Of a DNA stretch of 45,500 nucleotides, positions 4,667 to 45,500 are shown piece by piece. The stretch is taken from assembly GCA_017415455.1 (NCBI GenBank), contig JAFQGS010000057.1:1-45500 (forward strand). Direction: 5' to 3'. Origin of the DNA: Prevotella sp. (GTDB taxonomy: Bacteria > Bacteroidota > Bacteroidia > Bacteroidales > Bacteroidaceae). How positions within the stretch are numbered: the stretch's first letter is position 1; every line of letters begins with the position of its first letter. The position numbers and the translations under genes were made by a program. Below the pieces are notes generated by a model. That model did no database searches. It was not told the origin of the DNA and saw nothing but the letters and a program-made list of their open reading frames with translations.

Positions 4667-4741
4667 TAATATTAACGTGATTGTGTTATAATGAGAGAGT
4701 AAATTTTATCCTTTAATAGTGAACAGATAAAAGACATAACG

Positions 4742-5905
4742 ATGATAGCAAGAATTTTCATTCCGTTATTACTACTTATAATAATTCCAGATTTATATGT
4801 TCATCTGCATTATTTGCGTCATCGGGTTAAGTCCAAGTGGAAACAGCTGATATGGTGGATTCCATCTGTTCTGATGCTCGCTTTTACGATTTATCTGGCT
4901 TGGGGTAAAGGTTTTGCGCCAGGCGGGGTGATGCTTGTTAATTCGTATCTTTTCTTGCTTGGTGTTTTGGTTATTCCCAAAGCAGTTTTCTCTATATGTT
5001 CATTTTTAGGATGGCGCCATTGCAAGTTTCATAAGACGAAAAAAAACTGGGGCAATATAGTAGGCATTCTGCTGGCAGCGGGTATTATATATATAGTAGT
5101 ATATGGCAGCACAATAGGTTTCAATAAGATAGAGGTTCGTCATGAGGATTATTATTCAAGCCAATTGCCAAAGTCCTTTGACGGATATCGTATTGTTCAT
5201 CTGAGTGATATTCATATAGGAACATATACAAATGGTAACTCCTGGCTGCTGAAGGCAGCGATAGATTCTGTGAATGTACAGCACCCAGACCTTATCGCTT
5301 TTACTGGTGACTTACAGAATAGGGAACCAAGTGAGCTGTATCCTCATATAGAAACGTTATCGGCGCTGAAAGCTACCGATGGGGTGTTCTCTGTACGTGG
5401 AAATCATGATTATGCTGATTATATTCATGCGGAGCCTGCGGTGAAAGTAGCTAATGAACGTGAGCTTGTATCTCGGCAGAGACAGATGGGCTGGAATGTT
5501 CTTGTTAATGAGCATATATCTGTGCGACATGGGAAAGACTCGATTGTAATTGCAGGTATGGAAAATGATGGTACGGGGCCATTCCCAAAGCGTGGCGATG
5601 TGAAGAAGACAATGTCTGGGGTAAGTGACAATGCTTTTGTCCTGATGTTGGAGCATGACCCTACATCCTGGAGGAGAAACATCCTCCCCAAGAGCAATGC
5701 CCAACTGACGTTGAGTGGGCATACTCATGCAATGCAATTCAGTCTGTTTGGCTGGTCGCCGGCGTCACTTATCTATGAAGAGTGGGGAGGAATGTTTTAT
5801 GAGGGGGATCGTGCAATTAACGTCTCAACAGGTCTTGGCGGATTCATTCCATTCCGTTTCGGTGTAACTGGTGAGATTGTGGTTGTCACATTACATTCTA
5901 AGTGA
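4742..5905 (+). CDS. Membrane-anchored metallophosphoesterase (calcineurin-like)
   Basis: 387 aa. Residues 1-125 contain about four hydrophobic segments. The rest is a calcineurin-like phosphoesterase domain with all blocks: HLSDIHIG (about 153-160), GDLQN, GNHDY and the C-terminal SGHTHAMQ. These residues bind a dinuclear metal centre and hydrolyse phosphoester bonds. The YkuE/YaeI-like relatives act on membrane-associated substrates such as UDP-sugar-lipid intermediates, but the substrate here is not known. It is probably the last gene of the pyrC transcript. It ends 49 bases from the converging mfd stop with no obvious terminator hairpin. Confidence 0.9.
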   Translation: MIARIFIPLLLLIIIPDLYVHLHYLRHRVKSKWKQLIWWIPSVLMLAFTIYLAWGKGFAPGGVMLVNSYLFLLGVLVIPKAVFSICSFLGWRHCKFHKTKKNWGNIVGILLAAGIIYIVVYGSTIGFNKIEVRHEDYYSSQLPKSFDGYRIVHLSDIHIGTYTNGNSWLLKAAIDSVNVQHPDLIAFTGDLQNREPSELYPHIETLSALKATDGVFSVRGNHDYADYIHAEPAVKVANERELVSRQRQMGWNVLVNEHISVRHGKDSIVIAGMENDGTGPFPKRGDVKKTMSGVSDNAFVLMLEHDPTSWRRNILPKSNAQLTLSGHTHAMQFSLFGWSPASLIYEEWGGMFYEGDRAINVSTGLGGFIPFRFGVTGEIVVVTLHSK

Positions 5906-5954
5906 CATTATATTTCGAAGGGAACGGAACCTCTTGACACCATGTGTTATATCT

Positions 5955-8900
5955 TTAGGCTCCCTCCATTTTCCTTAATATACCTACAGCTTCGGCCACG
6001 GTACTGACGTCGTTTATCATCATGGTGCGCTTGCCGTTAATCTCTTTCAGATTACATTGGCGTGGATTGTCCGCAATGTAATTAAGGATATTTCCAAATG
6101 CGGCGCTTTTATAATATGCACTCATAGGATTGCTCACAAACTGCATCTGCATACGTTTCTGTTTCAGTGTTATCTTCTCGCATCCAAGTCGTTTGCCAAT
6201 TCTGCGCAAAGGCACAATCTGTAACAGTTCATTACCCTCATGCGGGATGTCGCCGAATCTGTCCACAAGATTCTTCTTGTATTTATCTAACTCACTGTCA
6301 TTTGAAATACTGTCAAGCTCACGATACAGCAACATCCTCTCACTGCTTCCCGGTACATAATAATCAGGGAAATACATTTCAAGATCGCTTTCAATTGCAC
6401 AGTCTTCCACAAATTCATCACCGGTAATCTTCTTACCTTCCGCAATATCTTCCTGGAACATATCTCCAAACTCATCATTCTTGAGTTCTACGATAGCCTG
6501 GCTAAGTATCTTCTGGTATGTCTCATATCCGAGTTCTTCCATAAATCCGCTTTGCTCGGCACCTAATAAGTTACCCGCTCCTCTGATATCAAGATCTTGC
6601 ATGGAAAGATTAAATCCGCTTCCTAATTCAGAGAATGTCTCAAGTGCCTCAAGTCTGCGTCTTGCTTCTTGTGTGAGGTTTGACAAAGGCGGTGCAATCA
6701 AGTAACAGAATGCTTTCTTATTACTTCTTCCGACTCTTCCTCTCATTTGGTGTAAGTCGGATAATCCGAACTTGTGTGCATCGTTTATTATTATGGTATT
6801 TGCGTTGCTGATGTCAATACCATTCTCTACGATAGTTGTTGATAACAGAACGTCATAGTCGTGATTCATGAATTCCATAACAATCTTTTCCAGTTCTTCC
6901 GGCTTCATTTGTCCATGACCAATAGCAACTCTTGCGTCTGGCACAAACTTGTTGATGAGCAATTTTAGTTCAGGCAGATTACTAATACGGTCATTGACAA
7001 AAAACACCTGTCCGTTTCTACTCATCTCAAACTCAATAGCGTCCTTTATAACTTCTTTGTAAAACGAGTGGATTTCCGTACAAATAGGATATCTGTTGGG
7101 TGGTGGGGTTTGCATTATGCTCATATCGCGTGCACCCATAAGTGAAAACTGTAATGTTCTTGGTATTGGTGTCGCACTCATGGTAAGTGTGTCAACATTG
7201 GTTTTCATCTTTCTGAGCTTTTCTTTAGTGGAAACGCCGAATTTCTGCTCCTCATCAATAATAAGAAGTCCTAAATCTTTGAACTTTACTGTTTTGCTGA
7301 TGAGTTTGTGAGTACCTATGATAATGTCAATCTTTCCGGCTTCAAGGTCTGCAAGCACTTCTTTTGTTGCTTTGGTGTTTCGTGCTCTGGAGAGGTAATC
7401 AACTCTTACAGGAAGATTCTTCAGACGTGATGAGAATGTCTGAAAATGCTGATAGGCAAGCACGGTTGTTGGTACAAGTACAGCCACTTGTTTAGAGTCG
7501 CACGCAGCCTTGAATGCAGCACGAACAGCCACTTCTGTTTTACCGAATCCAACATCGCCGCACACTAATCTGTCCATAGGCCTGCTGCTCTCCATGTCGG
7601 CTTTGACCTCGTTTGTGGCTTTCTGCTGGTCGGGCGTGTCCTCATAAAGGAAACTGGCTTCCAGTTCATGTTGCAGGAAAGAGTCCGCACTGAACGCAAA
7701 CCCTTTCTCATGTCTGCGTGCTGCATATAATTTAATAAGGTCACGGGCAATATCCTTAATCTTTTTCTTTGTACGTTCTTTCAGCCTGTCCCATGCTCCA
7801 GTTCCAAGAGTGCTTAACCGTGGAGGTGTCTCACTGTCATGGCGTTTATACTTGGATATTTTGTAAAGAGAATGAATACTGACATCCACCTTGTCATTAT
7901 GCTGATATACGATGCGAATCATTTCCTGATAGCTGCTGCCTGTAGGAACGCGTACCAAACCAGCAAACTTTCCTATACCAAAATCCACATGTACAATATA
8001 ATCTCCTATCTCCATCTCTTGTAGCTCTTTCAGCGTGAGTGCCATTTTTCCGCTGCGAGCAGCATCTGAGCGTAAATTATATTTATGGAAACGGTCGAAT
8101 ATCTGGTGATCTGTAAATATACAGACTTTAAGGTCGTTCTCAATGAATCCCTCATGCAATGTCTTCTCAACGGGAGTAAAAGGCAGATATGATGCGTACT
8201 CAGACTTACTCAGGTCTGTACTTTCCGGCTCGTCATGTCCTTTGCGTGCCGCATCTCGTTCATTGAAGATATCTCTAAGTCGCTGATTTTGTTTCTGGCT
8301 GTCAGCAAGTATGTACAGATGATATCCTTTTAATACATAGTCTTCGAATGTTTGGGTCAGCAACTCAAAATTCTTATGGAATAACGGTTGTATGCCAGTG
8401 TTGAATTCAATAGTAGCCTGTGGCGTACCAGTTGCCTTATTACCATATTCAATTCGTTTGAACTTTGTTATTTCCCTTATGAAGCAACTGGGTTCTATAA
8501 GTAGCGACTCTGCGCACAATTCCTGCATAATGTGATGGCTCTCCATTTCTGTCGCTCCGTTCAGACGCTCTGTTATGGCCTGTGTGGAAAAACCGTTGCG
8601 GTATGTCTGCTCCACAAGATCGCTCACCAGAGCGGTATTTCTCATTACAATCACAGAGTCGGATGGTAGAAACTCGGTAAATGGCACACGCTCATTGCTT
8701 ATAGCGGCAAGTTCCGGCACTATGTCAACATGTTGTTTTTTCTCTTTTGAAAGCTGACTCTGAACCTCAAAAGTGCGTATAGAGTCAATCTCGTCACCGA
8801 AGAAATCTATTCTGAATGGCAGTTCGTTGCTATATGAATAAACATCAATGATACTTCCTCGCATGGCAAATTGTCCAGGCTCATATACATAGTCCACTTC

Positions 8901-29477: not shown

Positions 29478-30827
29478 ATGGCAGATAAACACTCACAAGA
29501 ACATACTGAATATAATACTTATTCTGATTTTCTATCAGAAGCAATAACTATTCCACTTTTTAATTATGACAAAAGGAAAGAAGACAATCAACTGAATCTA
29601 CTCTCACTATTCTCTGGGTGCGGCGGAATGGATATTGGATTCGAGGGAGGGTTTATATGTCATAGGAAATCAATACCTGTCAATAAGAATTGGATAGGAA
29701 ATAACATTAACAAGGATTGGGTTCTATTGAAAAAGAACAGATTCAACACAATATTTGCAAACGACATCTTAAATGAGGCTATACTGACATGGTCAAACTA
29801 CATGAAACGTTTTGACAAAGACACGTCTGTATATCACACTGAAAGCATTGTTGATCTTGTAAAAGCCCATAAAACTGGAGCACATATCTTTCCTGAACAC
29901 GTTGATATTGTAACTGGCGGATTCCCATGTCAAGATTTTAGTGTCGCAGGAAAGCGGAAAGGATTTGAGTCAGACAAAGGGCATGATGGCAAAAAACACA
30001 ACACAGATATTCCTACTGAAGAAACAAGAGGAAAACTTTACTATTGGATGAAACAGGTCATTGACATTACTAAGCCTAAAGTTTTTGTAGCGGAGAATGT
30101 TAAAGGACTTATAAGTTTAGGAGATGTAAGGGATATCATCCAACACGACTTTGCCAATGCTGACGGAAATGGTTATATTGTTTTGCCCCCACAAGTATTG
30201 CATGCAGGGAACTATGGTGTACCAGAAACACGAGAACGTGTTATTTTCATTGGAATTCGTAAAAATGCATTACGACCAGAGATTCAATCTGTTCTAGAAA
30301 GCGATGAGATTCCTCAACATTATAATCCTTACCCTACCCCAACACACAATTTTAACGTTAATGACAATTCATTACTTGAACCTGTCTGTTGTAAAGATGT
30401 GCTTGGCGAATTAAACGAGCCGGATGACAGCCTTGATTTGTCACATCGATTTTATTCAAAAGCAAAATATATGGGTAAACATTGTCAAGGCCAATCTGAG
30501 ATTAACTTAAATGGCTTAGGGCCAACCATACGTTCTGAGCACCATGGTAATATTGAATTCAGAAGACTATCTGAAGAACATGGCGGAAAGAACAAAGAAG
30601 AGTTAGCAAATGGTTTAACAGAGAGACGTTTAACTCCAAGAGAATGTGCATTAATTCAAACATTCCCTCCAGACTACCCTTTCATAAAGTACAAAGGGTA
30701 TACCAAACGTTTTGAAGTAAATCAATCTGGAGCTTATAAAGTTATAGGTAATGCTGTACCACCTGTACTAGCATATAATATAGCAAGAAGATTACAAGAA
30801 TTGTGGCCTATATATTTTGGATCATGA
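29478..30827 (+). CDS. DNA (cytosine-5-)-methyltransferase, type II
   Basis: 449 aa. Complete 5mC enzyme: motif I LFSGCGGMDIGF (about 44-55, SAM binding), motif IV GFPCQDFSVAGKRKG with catalytic Cys151, motif VI ENVKGL, motif VIII region NYGVPETRERVIFIG, and motifs IX/X (RRLTPRECALIQTFPPDY and YKVIGNAVPPVLA). The first 38 residues are a polar extension before motif I, longer than minimal enzymes. The target-recognition region lies between motifs VIII and IX; its sequence target is unknown. The stop overlaps the start of the endonuclease gene by ATGA. Base composition is more AT-rich than neighbouring core genes, suggesting transfer. Confidence 0.93.
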   Translation: MADKHSQEHTEYNTYSDFLSEAITIPLFNYDKRKEDNQLNLLSLFSGCGGMDIGFEGGFICHRKSIPVNKNWIGNNINKDWVLLKKNRFNTIFANDILNEAILTWSNYMKRFDKDTSVYHTESIVDLVKAHKTGAHIFPEHVDIVTGGFPCQDFSVAGKRKGFESDKGHDGKKHNTDIPTEETRGKLYYWMKQVIDITKPKVFVAENVKGLISLGDVRDIIQHDFANADGNGYIVLPPQVLHAGNYGVPETRERVIFIGIRKNALRPEIQSVLESDEIPQHYNPYPTPTHNFNVNDNSLLEPVCCKDVLGELNEPDDSLDLSHRFYSKAKYMGKHCQGQSEINLNGLGPTIRSEHHGNIEFRRLSEEHGGKNKEELANGLTERRLTPRECALIQTFPPDYPFIKYKGYTKRFEVNQSGAYKVIGNAVPPVLAYNIARRLQELWPIYFGS

Positions 30828-31939
30828 AAAACAGAAGTGAGAATATTATTCAGATTCGCCAACGCGACATACATGAAGCGGATATGGCCTTTGCAGAGTT
30901 TATGAACTTAGCAGAGAATTGCCTTAATGAAAAGGCAAAACTTGATGTTGAATTATATAAATCATGTGAAGGGAAAAAACTTGAAAACGTAACAGAAAGT
31001 ATTTTAAAAGAAATAGCACCCGCAACTCCTTTTAGACCCGAAGACATTGTTTTAATATCTGGCGCTAAGTTCCCAGACATTCAAGCAGGAAAGTATTATG
31101 GTGTTGAAGTTAAATCAACAAAATCAAACTCATGGAGTTCTACTGGTAGTAGCATTGTTGAGAGTACAAGAATTACCGACGTATCAAAAATATACATGAT
31201 GTTTGGAAAACTTGGAGGAGAACATGCAGAATACAGATGCAGGCCATATGAAGAATGTTTGAGTAATATTGCAGTTACACATTCTCCACGTTACTTGATT
31301 GACATGACACTGAAAGATAATCAAACAGCGAGCATTTTTGACAAAATGAAAATTGATTATGACACATTCAGGTCATTGGATGAAAAAGACAAAATACAGC
31401 GAGTCAGAAATTATTACAAACAATCAAGGCGCGGATTTGAAATGCCATGGTGGATTGGAGATACAGAGTCTGAGACTTCCTCATCAATAATGATTCGTTT
31501 TTTCTGTGATGTGGAGGATGAGCTAAAAGAAGAAATTCTCACAAGAATGCTAATCTTATTTACAGAATTATTTAGATATAATTATTCTGATAAATACAAA
31601 AGAGCAGCATTATGGATGTGTAGCAGATATTCTATTATCAACAATTCACTTAGAGATAGTTTTTCTGCAGGAGGAAGATTAGATGAGATTGGAGGTGTAC
31701 ATTTCACCAAACCAGTACCTCAAATTCTGAATACTTTATATAATTACAGACATAATATTATAAAACTCTTAAAAGACCCAGACTCTACGTTATTAGAAGA
31801 TATTTATGACTATTGGAAACCACATACCTTTTCATGCAACCTTTACGACTATTGGCTGGAGGCAATACAGACAGAAATAAACAATAATCCCATTTGTAAG
31901 GATCTAAACATTTATGAATTAATGACCAAATGGTCCTAA
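30824..31939 (+). CDS. Type II restriction endonuclease (PD-(D/E)xK)
   Basis: 371 aa from the ATG at 30824, which overlaps the methyltransferase stop as ATGA. An upstream in-frame GTG at 30803 is less likely. The nuclease core is visible as FPDIQAGKYYGVEVKST: Asp85, then Glu95-x-Lys97, the PD-x9-ExK metal-binding triad. Around it are helix-rich regions with no other recognisable domain. The translationally coupled 5mC methyltransferase supplies protection, making this the cutting partner. The recognition sequence is unknown. AT-rich like its partner. It ends at a bidirectional terminator. Confidence 0.85.
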   Translation: MKNRSENIIQIRQRDIHEADMAFAEFMNLAENCLNEKAKLDVELYKSCEGKKLENVTESILKEIAPATPFRPEDIVLISGAKFPDIQAGKYYGVEVKSTKSNSWSSTGSSIVESTRITDVSKIYMMFGKLGGEHAEYRCRPYEECLSNIAVTHSPRYLIDMTLKDNQTASIFDKMKIDYDTFRSLDEKDKIQRVRNYYKQSRRGFEMPWWIGDTESETSSSIMIRFFCDVEDELKEEILTRMLILFTELFRYNYSDKYKRAALWMCSRYSIINNSLRDSFSAGGRLDEIGGVHFTKPVPQILNTLYNYRHNIIKLLKDPDSTLLEDIYDYWKPHTFSCNLYDYWLEAIQTEINNNPICKDLNIYELMTKWS

Positions 31940-40735: not shown

Positions 40736-40821
40736 AGACAAGTTATTGCTCACATGGGCAAAGGGAACGATTTTAATTGGAACTGATAAAAGAAACATAT
40801 CTTAAAAGAGATAAAGCAAAA

Positions 40822-41415
40822 ATGTCTCATATACCAAAGATAGCCATCATAGACCCCAACACACTTAGTGCGTTGGGGTTAAAAGGTATATTACAGAACA
40901 TCATCCCCATGTTGTCTATAGATTGTTTCAGCAGTTTTAAGGAACTATCAGCAAACGCTCCCGAACAATATTTTCATTTCTTTGCCTCATGGAACATAAT
41001 CCTTGAGAACAAGAAGTTCTTTGACGATAACAAACGTAAGACAATTGTTCTCACGCCGCAGCAGGAACAGAGCATATCATCCCTTGGCTTTCATTGCCTC
41101 TGCGTGAACCAACCTGAACACGAATTAGTAAAATCCATCCTTATGCTTGAGCAACATGCTCATCCGCATGGAGCCAACATGCCCATACCATCAACCGAAC
41201 CAGACAACAGTGTGTTATCTGTCCGTGAGATTGAAGTATTATCCTTAATTGTAAAGGGTTACATCAATAAGGAAATAGCATCAATACTGAACATCGGACT
41301 ACCCACTGTCATCACACACCGCCGTAACATAATGGAGAAACTAAACGCCAAAAGTGTCTCCACCCTAACCATTTACGCCGTAATGCGAGGATATGTCAAT
41401 ATCGACAGCATTTAA
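40822..41415 (+). CDS. LuxR-type HTH regulator with degenerate receiver
   Basis: 197 aa from the ATG at 40822 (MSHIPKIAIIDPN); an in-frame TTG at 40777 would add 15 residues. The N-terminal half looks like a response-regulator receiver (IAIIDPNTLSALGLKGIL), but the usual phospho-acceptor Asp block is replaced by FHFFASWNII, so it is probably not phosphorylated. The C-terminal half is a clear LuxR/GerE helix-turn-helix (LSVREIEVLSLIVKGYINKEIASILNIGLPTVITHRRNIMEKL). It follows oadB at 86 bases. Whether it controls the operon or shares its transcript is not known. Confidence 0.85.
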   Translation: MSHIPKIAIIDPNTLSALGLKGILQNIIPMLSIDCFSSFKELSANAPEQYFHFFASWNIILENKKFFDDNKRKTIVLTPQQEQSISSLGFHCLCVNQPEHELVKSILMLEQHAHPHGANMPIPSTEPDNSVLSVREIEVLSLIVKGYINKEIASILNIGLPTVITHRRNIMEKLNAKSVSTLTIYAVMRGYVNIDSI

Positions 41416-41491
41416 CATTTCCCCTTCTTTTATTTTGCCATCATTTTGGTAAAAAAATTACATTATTTATATTCTATTTAGAATAATTCTG

Positions 41492-41499
41492 TAACTTTG
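41492..41499 (+). promoter_or_regulatory. -7 promoter box of the TIR operon
   Basis: TAACTTTG. Leader to the ATG at 41655 would be about 150 bases, much longer than most in the window. No good -33 match. Confidence 0.5.
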
Positions 41500-41523
41500 T
41501 AATCGGTGAGTCCGGCGAATGAT

Positions 41524-41604
41524 ATTTGCATTTTAGCACAACAAAGTCACAACGACTTCTGCTGAACTGCAAATTTATAATTGATTTTCTGGCTCATGCC
41601 AGAA
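41524..41604 (+). ncRNA. Stacked-hairpin leader of the TIR operon, class unknown
   Basis: ATTTGCA (41524-41530) pairs with TGCAAAT (41568-41574). Inside it AGCA (41535-41538) pairs with TGCT (41560-41563), and inside that AAGTC (41544-41548) with GACTT (41554-41558) around an ACAAC loop. A second hairpin, TTCTGGC-TCAT-GCCAGAA, is at 41587-41604. Could be regulatory or a retained RNA; unproven. Confidence 0.45.
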
Positions 41605-41654
41605 TTTAAGCGAACATGAAAAACAAATATTGATATCCAATAAATTATAACAAT

Positions 41655-43052
41655 ATGGAACAGACTACATATGATGTGTTTATAAGTTATTCACGTAAAG
41701 ACTACGCTGACAAAGTTGGTAATGTCTTTGAAAATAATATACTTTCAAAAATTAAGAACACTCTTGAAACAAATGGAATATCTTATTGGTTTGATGAAGA
41801 AGGGATATTTTCTGGAGACGAGTTTGCCAGTGTACTTACTAATGCCATAAGAAACTCTAAATTATTCTTGTTTATCTCATCTGCAAACTCCAACCAATCC
41901 AAATGGACAAGTAATGAAATATCTACAGCGTTAGAATTTGGCAAGACAATCATTCCATTCCGAATTGATAATTCGCCATATAATGACTCTGTAATGATGA
42001 AAATCATTTCATTTGACTATATTGAATGCACTAACGAACAAAAAGCAATCAAGAAATTATTACGAGCAATTAATCACCACATAACAGAAAAGAACCAAAT
42101 TGAAAGCAGAATAATTGAAATCCCAGAAAGTGCTAATGGAGCTACAGTTATAATGGATATCGATGGGAAGAAAATAGAGCATGTCCTAACCTTAGATAAA
42201 AAAACTTTAAATCCTGAGTTATATAACAACCACAGTGCTAACATACGACAGGATTTGAAAGATGATTATTGCTCATTTAATCCGAATGACATTTCGGTCT
42301 GTGTTTCAGATAAGAAAACTCCGATAGTTCTACTAATAGGACCAGCTTGTGTTGGCAAGACTATGACATTAGTCCGACTTGCCCACTATTTATTAGGGCA
42401 AGGCTACACTGTTCAACCGGATAGGACATTCCGTTCTGTTATGGATGACGCAACATATTCTAAGCTATGTGATTCTTTTCAAGATCTTATCAACGGTCCT
42501 TATGTTGCCCCTGCAAACAGGATAAATGATTGTATATTAATAAAGACACTTAAATCAGGACGGAATATATTGCAGATAATAGATATGGCAGGTGAAGTTA
42601 TAATGAATCTCGGTTCCAAAACAACTCCTTCATATTTATATCAACTCTTGAATTTAGAAAATCCTATCATCTGGGTAATAATGATTGAACCATATTGGAC
42701 TGATATGAACGGTCGAAGAGCATTTGTTGAGAAAATCAGAGAATTGAAAGGACAATATATTTCATCAAAAGACAAAACAATAATTGTTGCTAACAAAATT
42801 GACAAGACTGCATTTTTAGAAGGCGGACAGAGAGTTGATTCAAAAGGATTATTTAACCAAATTCGAATGGAATACCCTGGATTATTGGAAATATTCCAAA
42901 ATATTAATCCGCTAGTTAAATTTTTCAAACCATACAATTGCACCCTTGTCCCTTTTATGTCCGGCAGATATATTCCGAGAGACGAAAGGCTTCTCTACTT
43001 TCTTTCACCTAAAGATTTCCCTCAAATCTTATGGAAAAAACTATTAAAATAA
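41655..43052 (+). CDS. TIR-GTPase fusion protein
   Basis: 465 aa. Residues about 5-140 are a TIR domain (YDVFISYSRKDYADK; WFDEEGI; LFLFISSANSNQSKWTSNEI). Trp84-x3-Glu88 matches the position of the catalytic glutamate of NAD-cleaving TIRs. A linker (141-215) leads to a P-loop domain: Walker A GPACVGKT (229-236), a G3-like DMAGE (310-314) and G4 NKID (380-383), so it is a GTPase-like NTPase, perhaps of the conflict-system DO-GTPase type. No membrane segment. Clearly AT-rich. Ten bases separate it from the next TIR gene. Function unknown; an immune role is inferred. Confidence 0.85.
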   Translation: MEQTTYDVFISYSRKDYADKVGNVFENNILSKIKNTLETNGISYWFDEEGIFSGDEFASVLTNAIRNSKLFLFISSANSNQSKWTSNEISTALEFGKTIIPFRIDNSPYNDSVMMKIISFDYIECTNEQKAIKKLLRAINHHITEKNQIESRIIEIPESANGATVIMDIDGKKIEHVLTLDKKTLNPELYNNHSANIRQDLKDDYCSFNPNDISVCVSDKKTPIVLLIGPACVGKTMTLVRLAHYLLGQGYTVQPDRTFRSVMDDATYSKLCDSFQDLINGPYVAPANRINDCILIKTLKSGRNILQIIDMAGEVIMNLGSKTTPSYLYQLLNLENPIIWVIMIEPYWTDMNGRRAFVEKIRELKGQYISSKDKTIIVANKIDKTAFLEGGQRVDSKGLFNQIRMEYPGLLEIFQNINPLVKFFKPYNCTLVPFMSGRYIPRDERLLYFLSPKDFPQILWKKLLK

Positions 43053-43062
43053 ATGGTTTAAT

Positions 43063-44568
43063 ATGAATTACAAATACGACATATTCATAAGCTACAAACG
43101 CAAGAGCCTACCAACGGCGAACAACTTGTATTACAGGCTGACGACGCGAGGCTACTCCACTTTTTTCGATCTTGAAGAGATGGGAAGAGATAATTTCAAT
43201 GTGCAGTTATTGAACTGCATTGAGAATGCTAAGGATGTGTTCGTCATCCTGGAGGAAGGTTCGATTGATGGCTGTCAGAAAGAGAATTGGGAGGAAGAGG
43301 ACTGGTTCTGCCATGAAATCGCCTTTGCATTGGAAAAGAAAAAGAATATCATACCTATTTTGCTGAATGGCTATCAGATGCCGTCACAGGATTTCTTCCC
43401 TGATAGACTGAAGGAACTAAGCCTTAAGAATGCACCTGAATTCAACTTTTCGTTCTTTGAGGCTTACCTTGACAAACTGATAGAGAAAGACTATCTCCTT
43501 TCCAAGCCTAATATTCAAGACAAGACAACGTCTGTTTTCAAGTTCTATTCCAACGAGAACTGTCAGGTTTTCAAGGAAGGGAAACTGGTATGCAGCCTTG
43601 AAGGAATGTCCGACGAACCTTATTATTTGCCAGTACCGAGGAAGGGGGATTATAGGTTCAAGGCTGTGAACTATAATTCAAAATCAGTTCAAATACTAAA
43701 TGAGTCAATAGATGCTGGAGAAGAAAAAAGCATAGAAGTAAAATGGTATAATGAACAGGCTTTTAGAACTCCTTTCCATGGTAACCATAAAGGATGCAGC
43801 GTAGCTATTAGTATTGCTCTGTTGATTTTAATAGTTTTTCTGCCAGTAAGATATTGGCTATCATCTTACAATAGAAGTCTCCCAACTGAGAATATGCAAT
43901 CTGTAAAATATGATTCATCATCTTCGTTAAATACACAGACTAAAGATAACAACTATGATATTGATGATAAAGAAAACGATGTGGTAAGAGAGGATAACGG
44001 TCCAAATTCTCTAAGTTCAGACGATTTTGTGGATTTAGGATTAAGCGTGAATTGGGCCAGTAAAAATGTTGGGGCTACTTCACCTGAAGATGCTGGAGGT
44101 TATTATGCATGGGGAGAAATAAAGGAAAAGGATGAATACACAGAAGAATCGTATGAATATAGGTATGTAAAATATGGTTATACTCAAACGAAAAAAATCG
44201 CATCAAATATTTCTGGAACAAGGTATGATGTTGCAAGGTCATTACTTGGCGAGAACTATCGCATGCCAACAAAGGATGAGATGAAAGAATTGATATTAAA
44301 ATGTGATTGGCATTATGGAACTGTCAATGAAGTTCCTGGTATGGTTGTAACAGGAAAAAATGGGAATTGCATATTCATCCCAGATGTAGGCAGTAAAGTA
44401 AACATGTCAACAAATAGAATTTGTTATTATTGGACAAGCACAGCAGATGAATATGGTATCCCTTATTGTTTATTTATGGCTGCATTCCCTGAAGAGTCTA
44501 AATATGATTTGATAAATCATGTTTCTGTAGAACATGGATTAGCAATACGTCCTGTTGTACAGAAATAA
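43063..44568 (+). CDS. TIR protein with one membrane segment and C-terminal FISUMP domain
   Basis: 501 aa. Residues about 4-140: TIR (YKYDIFISYKRKS; STFFDLEEMG; Trp81-x3-Glu85 in WFCHEIAFAL). About 155-230: a beta-rich PEGA-like module (FYSNENCQVFKEGKLVCSL...YRFKAVNY). About 246-266: a single membrane helix (VAISIALLILIVFLPVRYWL). About 270-315: a polar, Ser/Asp-rich linker. About 320-500: a FISUMP (Fibrobacter succinogenes major paralogous) domain with DFVDLGLSVNWASKNVGA, YYAWGE, YRMPTKDEMKEL and YYWTSTADE. The layout suggests a cytoplasmic TIR wired to an outside sensor domain. G+C falls sharply after the TIR/PEGA-like part. Confidence 0.85.
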   Translation: MNYKYDIFISYKRKSLPTANNLYYRLTTRGYSTFFDLEEMGRDNFNVQLLNCIENAKDVFVILEEGSIDGCQKENWEEEDWFCHEIAFALEKKKNIIPILLNGYQMPSQDFFPDRLKELSLKNAPEFNFSFFEAYLDKLIEKDYLLSKPNIQDKTTSVFKFYSNENCQVFKEGKLVCSLEGMSDEPYYLPVPRKGDYRFKAVNYNSKSVQILNESIDAGEEKSIEVKWYNEQAFRTPFHGNHKGCSVAISIALLILIVFLPVRYWLSSYNRSLPTENMQSVKYDSSSSLNTQTKDNNYDIDDKENDVVREDNGPNSLSSDDFVDLGLSVNWASKNVGATSPEDAGGYYAWGEIKEKDEYTEESYEYRYVKYGYTQTKKIASNISGTRYDVARSLLGENYRMPTKDEMKELILKCDWHYGTVNEVPGMVVTGKNGNCIFIPDVGSKVNMSTNRICYYWTSTADEYGIPYCLFMAAFPEESKYDLINHVSVEHGLAIRPVVQK

Positions 44569-44629
44569 CTTTGACGTCCGCCTAACTTGATAAAATAATA
44601 TACTATATTTCCAACAATAATATCAATCT

Positions 44630-45500
44630 ATGACTAATGACAATAACGAAATATGGGTTTTCCTTTCTCATTCCAATAAGGATTATGAGAAGGTAAGGAT
44701 ATTAAGGAATCTGTTAGAGGAAAATGGATTCCGACCTATTATGCTGTATTTACGTTCTAAAGAGGATCCTTCGAAAGTTAAAGAATTGCGACAGTTGATT
44801 TATGATGAGATAGATCATAGGAATAGGTTTATTCTTTGTGACAGCGAGAATGCCAGGAATTCAGATTGGGTTAACGAAGAGGTTGAATACATTAAAAGCA
44901 AGCAACGTATTTATCAAACCATTGACATTGATGCTTCAATAGAAAATATATCCGCATCAATTTTGAATTTCAAGAAAGAGTCTTCTGTATTTGTATCTTA
45001 TGCACGGAGAGATACAGAAATATATAAGCAACTTACATGCCTTCTAAAGCAGGATTGGGGAGTTAGAATAAATGAATGGGAAGATGGTGCAGGTAAATCG
45101 TTTTGTCAATCAATTCAAACCAATATCGACAAAGCTGTTGCGGATGGATACATTATCTTTTTAATCACAGAGAATTTCCTAAAATCGGAGTGGTGTAGAA
45201 CAGAAATGCAATATACTTTAAACAAAACCAATGGGCAGACACATAATATCATTTTCTTGTGTTCAGTAAAGTTTGATTCTATAAAGAAGGCCTTACCTGA
45301 TTACAAGTACAATTTAATAAACTTTTCATATAGCGAAAATAAGATTAATATTGACAGGCTATCATTGTACTTTAAACTTATGGGTAAAGAAATTGCACAA
45401 CGTGCAAAAAAAGGAGACCCCCAGGCAATCGCTTGGCAATTGGAATATGCTGATCGCTTTTATAAAGTAGGAGAACACTTATATCTCAGAGATGTATATA
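44630..45500 (+). CDS. Tandem TIR-TIR protein (3' end beyond window)
   Basis: 290 codons visible from the ATG at 44630, still open at the window end. TIR-1 is about residues 7-95 (EIWVFLSHSNKDYEK; Trp80-x3-Glu84). TIR-2 is about 118-235 (SSVFVSYARRDTEIYKQ; Trp188-x3-Glu192 in SEWCRTEM). From about 255 the text AQRAKKGDPQAIAWQLEYADRFYKVG looks like the start of Sel1/TPR-type helical repeats. It follows the TIR-FISUMP gene after 61 bases on the same strand with no terminator between, so it probably belongs to the same transcript. No hydrophobic segment in the visible part. Confidence 0.85.
   Translation, partial: MTNDNNEIWVFLSHSNKDYEKVRILRNLLEENGFRPIMLYLRSKEDPSKVKELRQLIYDEIDHRNRFILCDSENARNSDWVNEEVEYIKSKQRIYQTIDIDASIENISASILNFKKESSVFVSYARRDTEIYKQLTCLLKQDWGVRINEWEDGAGKSFCQSIQTNIDKAVADGYIIFLITENFLKSEWCRTEMQYTLNKTNGQTHNIIFLCSVKFDSIKKALPDYKYNLINFSYSENKINIDRLSLYFKLMGKEIAQRAKKGDPQAIAWQLEYADRFYKVGEHLYLRDVY

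What the first reader, a model, noticed from the sequence alone, without database searches (positions are those of the whole stretch)
41416..45500. Candidate new system: operon with four TIR domains in three proteins
Seen: three consecutive plus-strand genes (TIR-GTPase; TIR-membrane helix-FISUMP; TIR-TIR) spaced 10 and 61 bases apart, AT-rich, behind one promoter and a structured leader. All four TIRs retain W-x3-E, matching the position of Glu642 of SARM1 (WVHKE) and of the glutamate of bacterial NADase TIRs. Known: bacterial TIRs act in Thoeris, Pycsar, CBASS and TIR-pAgo defence. None of those has this layout (no ThsA, cyclase, SAVED or Argonaute is seen). Inference: a surface-sensing, GTPase-gated NADase or signalling circuit.
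Basis: partly seen in the sequence, partly recalled or inferred. Interest (0 to 1): 0.85.

Follow-up and report, generated by a model that had tools for sequence, protein, structure and literature searches.

The report
TIR gene cluster with ryanodine-type partners
At the cut-off end of a contig, a bacterium carries three immune-type (TIR) genes built from interchangeable parts; several relatives of this cluster in other bacteria sit near genes holding the same domain as animal ryanodine-receptor calcium channels, which suggests, but does not prove, an old signalling partnership between the two.

Summary
In detail: three plus-strand genes (TIR-GTPase, TIR-TM-FISUMP-like, TIR-TIR), 10 and 61 bases apart, every TIR with W-x3-E. 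The contig ends at 45500, so gene 3 and the operon are truncated. The trio was not found again, so it is not a fixed new system but one assortment from a modular Bacteroidales TIR repertoire. Residues 1-200 of gene 2 are 85-94% identical in five other genes with different C-termini (FISUMP, FGE lectin, or a gene-1-type GTPase). In 45 genomes of the genus, 14 of 15 RyR-domain hits lie within 10 kb of a TIR, and four genomes have compact operons of TIR, a membrane protein with an RyR-type end, and a small RyR protein. Best reading: sensor-triggered TIRs make an ADP-ribose-type signal that RyR-domain proteins read or erase. Limits: no RyR gene is on the window's contig (the genome's one PF02026 hit is elsewhere); 13 of 24 RyR-bearing genomes of the order sample have no TIR within 10 kb; W-x3-E also occurs in Toll-like receptors; no activity or structure could be tested.

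The parts
40777..41415 (+). LuxR-family regulator gene just upstream; not clearly part of the system
   Evidence: PF00196 E 2e-17; GC 40.4%
41492..41654 (+). Putative -7-like element and structured leader RNA
   Evidence: Fold z -3.45, 0 of 200 shuffles as good for 41500-41654; no Rfam match; no convincing match in fetched loci; -7 motif recalled
41655..43052 (+). Gene 1: TIR (about 5-145) fused to a P-loop GTPase-like domain (about 205-465)
   Evidence: PF13676 E 3e-18; full-length relative L084 at 55%; GTPase family alignment A4
43063..44568 (+). Gene 2: TIR plus linker (1-200), one hydrophobic helix (about 245-266), FISUMP-like C-terminal part (about 315-501)
   Evidence: PF13676 E 8e-10; full relative L087_13 at 57%; module analysis
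44630..45500 (+). Gene 3: tandem TIR-TIR, truncated by the contig end
   Evidence: two TIR_2 stretches; one relative in G009 at 42% over residues 3-203

Best explanation
The window holds the visible start of a mosaic TIR island. Each protein joins a cytosolic TIR to an exchangeable regulatory or sensing part: a GTPase switch (gene 1), a transmembrane, probably periplasmic, lectin-type domain (gene 2), or a second TIR (gene 3). When a sensor is triggered, the TIRs cluster and convert NAD+ into an ADP-ribose-type signal. In this family of islands that signal is read or erased by RyR-domain proteins: a C39-peptidase-like protein with an RyR domain, membrane proteins ending in an RyR-type domain (some of them RCK-channel-like), and small stand-alone RyR proteins that may be the off-switch. 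Shown here: the architectures, the exchange of parts, the RyR-TIR linkage in related loci, and conserved ligand-type residues. Inferred: NADase activity, the identity of the signal, channel gating, an anti-invader role, and that the window's own operon belongs to or continues into such an island.
For: Gene 1's TIR matches the NAD+ hydrolases AbTIR (E 6e-4) and SARM1 (E 7e-3 to 9e-3), weakly. Gene-2 module: residues 1-200 are 85-94% identical in 5 other genes of 4 genomes whose C-terminal parts are FISUMP (1), FGE (3) or GTPase (1) (labels; identity); dN 0.025-0.091 with dS 1.6, 2.3 or saturated in those 5 comparisons. Full-length gene-1 relative L084 is followed by TIR-FGE and, two genes on, by an RyR gene. 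RyR within 10 kb of a TIR_2 hit: 14 of 15 hits, 10 of 11 RyR-bearing genomes of a 45-genome genus sample (the window's own genome included); 13 of 30 hits, 11 of 24 genomes of a 295-genome order sample (own genome left out); uniform placement predicts about 3% and 1% of genomes. 10 of 17 fetched gene-1-match loci hold an RyR or RyR-like gene. Compact operons in G163, G517, G109, G037, with overlapping frames. The 2-helix family as a profile matches a TrkA-domain protein (4gx0), DMI1 and CASTOR, E 3e-5 to 8e-5; the other membrane family's C-terminus matches an RyR1 chimera, E 9e-8. RyDEP spacing H-x2-W-x21-H-x16-D (residues from PMC13232231) is exact in 13 of 24 RyR hits, including the window genome's own.
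Against: No RyR gene is on the window's contig; contig C34 with the genome's one PF02026 hit cannot be joined to it. W-x3-E is in only 65 of 90 TIR domains of the fetched loci and also in TLR6. RyR and TIR may cluster only because both lie in defence islands; no control domain was run. 13 of 24 RyR-bearing genomes of the order sample have no TIR_2 within 10 kb, 5 of them none at all. 7 of 17 gene-1-match loci have no RyR, and 4 of the 10 positive ones (G392, G197, G438, G381) have only a divergent or seed-matched one. Exact RyDEP spacing fails in 11 of 24 hits. Of 10 long proteins scanned, none reaches the Pfam RyR cut-off; the two compact-operon RCK proteins (L136_7, L165_8) have no RyR hit at all in Pfam and are called RyR-type through relatives. 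No structure prediction could be run.
Confidence: 0.45

Rival explanations
1. Independent abortive effectors: each TIR protein senses its own trigger and simply depletes NAD+; no second messenger and no RyR step.
For: Each protein has its own putative sensor or regulator; matches to the NAD+ hydrolases AbTIR and SARM1; 7 of 17 gene-1-match loci lack RyR in the fetched stretch.
Against: TIR and RyR frames overlap in G163 and G517; RyR linkage far above uniform placement.
Confidence: 0.3
2. Non-catalytic TIR scaffolds: the TIRs only assemble a membrane signalling complex, and output comes from peptidases of the island (C39-like, PrsW, and CHAT-like and trypsin-like ones by my reading).
For: W-x3-E also in TLR6; 25 of 90 TIRs lack it; PrsW in the same genome on C133; C39-like and PrsW genes in other islands.
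Against: All four TIRs of the window keep W-x3-E (read); the very low dN of the gene-2 module fits an enzyme or a fixed interface alike.
Confidence: 0.12
3. A GTPase-centred conflict system of the DO-GTPase kind (Kaur 2020) with TIR as its effector.
For: N-K-x-D in 11 of 12 and a Walker B glutamate in 10 of 12 family members, read; that paper describes a TRAFAC family with a Walker B glutamate (section 27 read).
Against: No DO-GTPase model among the 25 families shown of 33; no GAP1 among five proteins of the one locus scanned; 9 of 9 GTPase-only loci carry another set of partners with a retropepsin-like gene.
Confidence: 0.08

Closest known systems
Thoeris, including NCBIfam Thoeris_type3_ThcB4
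   Same: TIR proteins that convert NAD+ into signalling nucleotides (PMC13232231, abstract); several TIR genes per operon seem known for type III, judged only from the name ThcB4
   Different: No ThsA seen in the truncated window; ThcB4 scores 19-39 bits against a cut-off of 220; related loci have RyR-domain proteins and RyR-ended membrane proteins instead
RyDEP, phage RyR-domain glycosidase that cleaves 2'/3'-cADPR (PMC13232231, outline and passages read)
   Same: PF02026 domain; exact H-x2-W-x21-H-x16-D spacing in 13 of 24 RyR hits here
   Different: Here the domain is encoded by the bacterium near TIR genes, and is also fused to C39-like and membrane proteins
DO-GTPase systems (PMC7159879, passages and section 27 read) and FGS lectin-sensor systems (PMC8195603, passages read)
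   Same: GTPase with Walker B Glu; TIR and FGS lectin domains in modular systems
   Different: No GAP1 in the one locus scanned; FISUMP-like, RyR and retropepsin-like partners
CASTOR/DMI1 and TrkA-domain (4gx0) RCK channels
   Same: 2-helix and RCK part of the A2 family match at E 3e-5 to 1e-4
   Different: C-terminal RyR-type part and operon with TIR

Membership tests
Thoeris | ThsB-type TIR protein | tested here: inconclusive
   PADLOC ThsB models match the TIR parts (best 9e-16, gene 3; no cut-off given); PF08937 over cut-off for genes 1 and 3
Thoeris | ThsA or other type-specific effector in the operon | tested here: inconclusive
   none among the three visible genes, but the contig ends at 45500
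Thoeris type III | ThcB4 equivalog cut-off (220 bits) | tested here: not met
   23.5, 24.6 and 31.5 bits for the window proteins; 19-39 for five relatives
NADase TIR | W-x3-E glutamate | tested here: met
   read in all four; first TIR lined up with AbTIR; not specific, see TLR6
NADase TIR | NAD+ cleavage | not testable with these tools
   needs an assay
DO-GTPase system | GAP1 protein beside the GTPase | tested here: not met
   Pfam scan of five genes in L065; the other 8 GTPase-only loci were not scanned with Pfam; the window's own operon is truncated
DO-GTPase system | TRAFAC GTPase with Walker B Glu | tested here: inconclusive
   Glu in 10 of 12 read from A4; no DO-GTPase model among the 25 families shown, 8 of 33 not shown
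RyR (PF02026) | domain over Pfam cut-off in loci with relatives of the window genes | tested here: met
   L087_7 and L084_5; own-genome C34 protein; 8 of 10 genomes of gene-1 relatives over cut-off
RyR (PF02026) | RyR gene in the window's own operon | tested here: inconclusive
   none on contig C41; the genome's one hit is on C34; the operon is truncated
Retroelement-diversified lectin (DGR) | template copy of the gene-2 3' end in the genome | tested here: not met
   only the self match for 44330-44568 in an incomplete genome; reverse transcriptase not searched

The most novel reading that the evidence does not exclude
Bacteroidales encode a TIR to ADP-ribose-type signal to ryanodine-type receptor axis: TIR proteins with swappable sensors make the signal, RCK-channel-like and other membrane proteins bearing a C-terminal RyR-type domain (and C39-RyR peptidase-like proteins) are its receptors, and small RyR proteins end it. 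This would be a bacterial counterpart, possibly a forerunner, of the disputed cADPR-ryanodine receptor link in animals, and the window's operon would be one variable input arm of it.
Probability: 0.25. Interest if true: 0.92.

Novelty: new variant of a known kind. Interest (0 to 1): 0.68.

Why it matters
If right, it names a receptor class for TIR signals in a major group of gut and rumen bacteria, gives a reason why bacteria keep ryanodine-receptor domains, and makes the old question whether cADPR-type molecules act directly on RyR domains testable with small soluble proteins. It also shows TIR immunity built like a kit: a near-invariant TIR module with exchangeable ends.

Tried and rejected
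The trio as a conserved system: gene 1 and the gene-2 module searched in 398 genus genomes, gene 3 in 149 relatives; the trio was not found again. Carriage by phages or plasmids: short-peptide scans of viral contigs, which find close relatives only, gave none for the gene-2 module, gene 3 and gene 1; gene 1 had no match in plasmids. Lectin diversification by a retroelement: no second copy of the gene-2 3' end. Known RNA leader: no Rfam hit. Conserved leader: nothing convincing in fetched loci, best other match E 0.02. tRNA insertion site: no tRNA in the window. Structure prediction: not available, so no fold or complex was modelled. Ten paper searches of an open-licence library listed no paper that I recognised as describing TIR-RyR operons in Bacteroidales; the lists are capped, most subscription papers are not held, and the 2025 Yirmiya preprint on TIR signalling systems, cited in PMC13232231, did not appear and was not read. 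Prior description cannot be excluded.

Dropped or limited: two weak GTPase-part matches (L035, L037) were set aside as other nucleotide-binding proteins by reading. Five TIR loci (G431, G260, G422, G397, G230) were not fetched with wide flanks and are not in the 17. Of those 17, G176 matches gene 1 by its GTPase, not its TIR. Gene maps are greedy six-frame ORFs, not curated genes. Labels RCKch, RyRlike, C39, MscS, CHAT, trypsin-like, kinase and macro there come from single-sequence seeds; CHAT, trypsin-like, kinase and macro were named by my reading of the seed and were not confirmed by a family model. Transmembrane counts are a simple hydropathy cut; it marks one helix in gene 1, which I take as part of the GTPase fold since the L084 relative has none.
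Full report
WHAT IS THERE. Three plus-strand genes lie at its right end: 41655-43052 (465 aa), 43063-44568 (501 aa) and 44630 to the end (at least 290 aa, cut off). Pfam finds TIR_2 over cut-off in each, in two stretches in the third. All four TIRs have W-x3-E by reading. Upstream are a LuxR-family gene and DNA of 43.8% GC; genes 1 and 3 have 33.5 and 33.8%. The leader is more structured than each of 200 shuffles, but has no Rfam match and no convincing match in the fetched loci.

HOW SECURE ARE THE LABELS. Gene 1's TIR matches solved TIRs weakly: best 7uwg (E 3e-4), AbTIR (6e-4), SARM1 (7e-3 to 9e-3). Gene 3's second TIR matches Toll-like receptors best, and TLR6 has the same W-x3-E spacing, so that motif alone does not show NADase activity. 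The GTPase domain has Walker A, D-x-A-G-E and N-K-x-D, but no Pfam nucleotide-binding family passes its cut-off for gene 1. As a 12-member profile its best PDB match is a signal-recognition-particle receptor G domain, E 6e-5, over a short stretch. FISUMP is sub-threshold in Pfam and rests on relatives.

IT IS MODULAR, NOT A FIXED TRIO. The trio was not found again. Gene 1 in 398 genus genomes gave 30 with any match at E 1e-15, own included; the gene-2 module gave 11 of 398 at E 1e-12, only two of them full-length and above 80% identity (own and G176), with a 36-residue 94% fragment in G451; gene 3 gave 2 of 149 at E 1e-10, own included. Parts recur instead. L084 (Bacteroides sp. SIG136) has a full-length gene-1 relative at 55%, followed 11 bases later by a TIR-FGE gene. 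L087 (Prevotella sp. UBA2754) has a TIR 54% like gene 1's, then a full relative of gene 2 (57%), then a protein with a C-terminal TIR, then a STAND-type protein with WD40 repeats. In G176, a one-contig genome, the gene-2 TIR module (82%) is fused to a gene-1-type GTPase (37%). Residues 1-200 of gene 2 are 85-94% identical in five further genes of four genomes whose C-terminal parts are FISUMP (1), FGE (3) or GTPase (1); the sixth row of that call, L086_16, is the same gene as L149_3 cut short. DNA identity falls sharply near codon 200 in the three uncut sequences tested, and likewise in the cut one as far as it goes. dN is 0.025-0.091 with dS 1.6, 2.3 or saturated: an old, tightly conserved module with exchanged ends. 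In the window gene the two parts also differ in GC, 41.8 and 34.9%.

THE GTPASE HAS ANOTHER LIFE. In 9 of 9 fetched GTPase-only loci it sits in a conserved row: a 3-4-helix protein of about 356 aa, the GTPase, a one-helix protein (recognisably the same family in 6 of 9), a retropepsin-like protease, and a coiled-coil one-helix protein (Pfam for one locus). Fusion to a TIR was seen three times: window, L084, G176.

THE RYR LINK. Loci with relatives of the window genes carry RyR-domain (PF02026) genes: L084 and L087 by Pfam, L086 and G176 by my profile and L086's genome by Pfam. 8 of 10 genomes of gene-1 relatives have a PF02026 match over cut-off and one more a weak match, against 11 of 45 in the genus sample and 25 of 295 in the order sample, both including the window's own genome. 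With TIR_2 as marker, 14 of 15 genus RyR hits (10 of 11 genomes) and 13 of 30 order hits (11 of 24 genomes, own left out) are within 10 kb of a TIR; uniform placement in 3 Mb predicts about 3% and 1% of genomes. That does not correct for defence islands and no control domain was run. Of the 24 order genomes, 5 have no TIR_2 match at all. Among 17 fetched loci with gene-1 matches, 10 have an RyR or RyR-like gene: clear RyR in G176, G025, G323, G280, G163 and G414, divergent or seed-matched only in G392, G197 (one of its two loci), G438 and G381; none in G451, the second G197 locus, G454, G236, G209, G063 and G049. The 20 regions were partly chosen because they hold RyR, so no frequency is drawn from them.

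COMPACT OPERONS. G163: 2-helix RCK-type protein 4670-6787, gene-1-type TIR (46%) 6806-7891, RyR 7888-8190. G517: RCK-type protein 11779-9638, RyR 9624-9325, TIR 9328-8189. G109: TIR, 3-helix RyR-ended protein, RyR (9-base gap, 8-base overlap). G037: TIR, 3-helix RyR-ended protein, RyR (69-base gap, 14-base overlap). The 2-helix family, as a profile of 8, matches a TrkA-domain protein (4gx0), DMI1 and CASTOR; the second family, as a profile of 6, matches an RyR1 chimera at its C-terminus, E 9e-8, and no channel. Per protein, Pfam is weak: of 10 scanned, RyR is listed for four, none over cut-off (best L162_9, 27.1 against 27.4 bits), and L154_8 alone passes for RCK; L136_7 and L165_8 have neither. 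On the other hand, six-frame searches put PF02026 over its cut-off in 13 hits inside open frames of 476-925 aa in related genomes. By motif, the RyDEP residues H75, W78 and H100 correspond to columns invariant in both alignments, with an invariant aspartate 16 (A2) or 17 (A3) positions further, 17 in RyDEP; in two of the eight A2 members an insertion lies between. In the RyR set, exact spacing is kept in 13 of 24 hits, including the window genome's own RyR protein on C34. The 2026 preprint shows phage RyR proteins that cleave or sequester 2'/3'-cADPR (PMC13232231; outline and passages read).

MECHANISM. Most likely: sensing by the GTPase, by the FISUMP-like domain across the inner membrane, or by TIR pairing leads to TIR clustering, an ADP-ribose-type product, and RyR-domain receptors or hydrolases. 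Only the genetics of this chain is shown, and mostly in relatives. The own genome does hold an RyR protein and a TIR-FGE gene on C34, a PrsW protease beside a TIR on C133, and a TIR-propeller protein on C91, with RCK/RyR-like, CHAT-like and trypsin-like neighbours by seed or reading, but their place relative to the window is unknown.

AGAINST KNOWN SYSTEMS. PADLOC gives ThsB-type matches to the TIR parts; NCBIfam gives ThcB4 at 19-39 bits against 220. The GTPase is not shown to be a DO-GTPase. FGS-type lectin sensors in conflict systems with TIR are described by Burroughs 2021 (PMC8195603, passages), so the sensor-TIR principle is known; the constant-module, variable-end pattern and the RyR linkage are what I did not see in ten capped paper searches.

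VERDICT.

Noticed in passing
L064, L065, L068, L069, L142-L146: Conserved row around a solo GTPase of the gene-1 type: 3-4-helix protein, GTPase, one-helix protein, retropepsin-like protease, coiled-coil one-helix protein; 9 of 9 loci. No function found.
   Followed up: partly
window 29478-31939: C5 cytosine methylase (PF00145) overlapping a 378-aa gene without Pfam match: probable restriction-modification pair (inference).
   Followed up: partly
L086 15725-17503: DUF4062 protein inside a TIR/RyR island; the start of a 2026 preprint abstract (PMC13174449, search listing only) calls DUF4062 a TIR-like NADase family.
   Followed up: no
L128 2601-4238 (G176): Microbial PARG-type domain (PF10021) near the island: another ADP-ribose enzyme.
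   Followed up: no
L129, L150, L154: A sigma-70-like gene (Pfam match below cut-off) directly before a C39-RyR gene whose N-terminus weakly resembles an anti-sigma factor.
   Followed up: partly
own genome contigs C34, C91, C133 (L010, L009, L011): More TIR genes: TIR-FGE and RyR on C34, TIR-propeller on C91, TIR beside PrsW on C133; C34 and C133 both end in a similar TPR-type gene, a likely cause of the assembly breaks.
   Followed up: partly
window 41500-41654: Unusually structured leader without known family; a NusG-like gene opens the G176 island, so antitermination is one possibility.
   Followed up: partly
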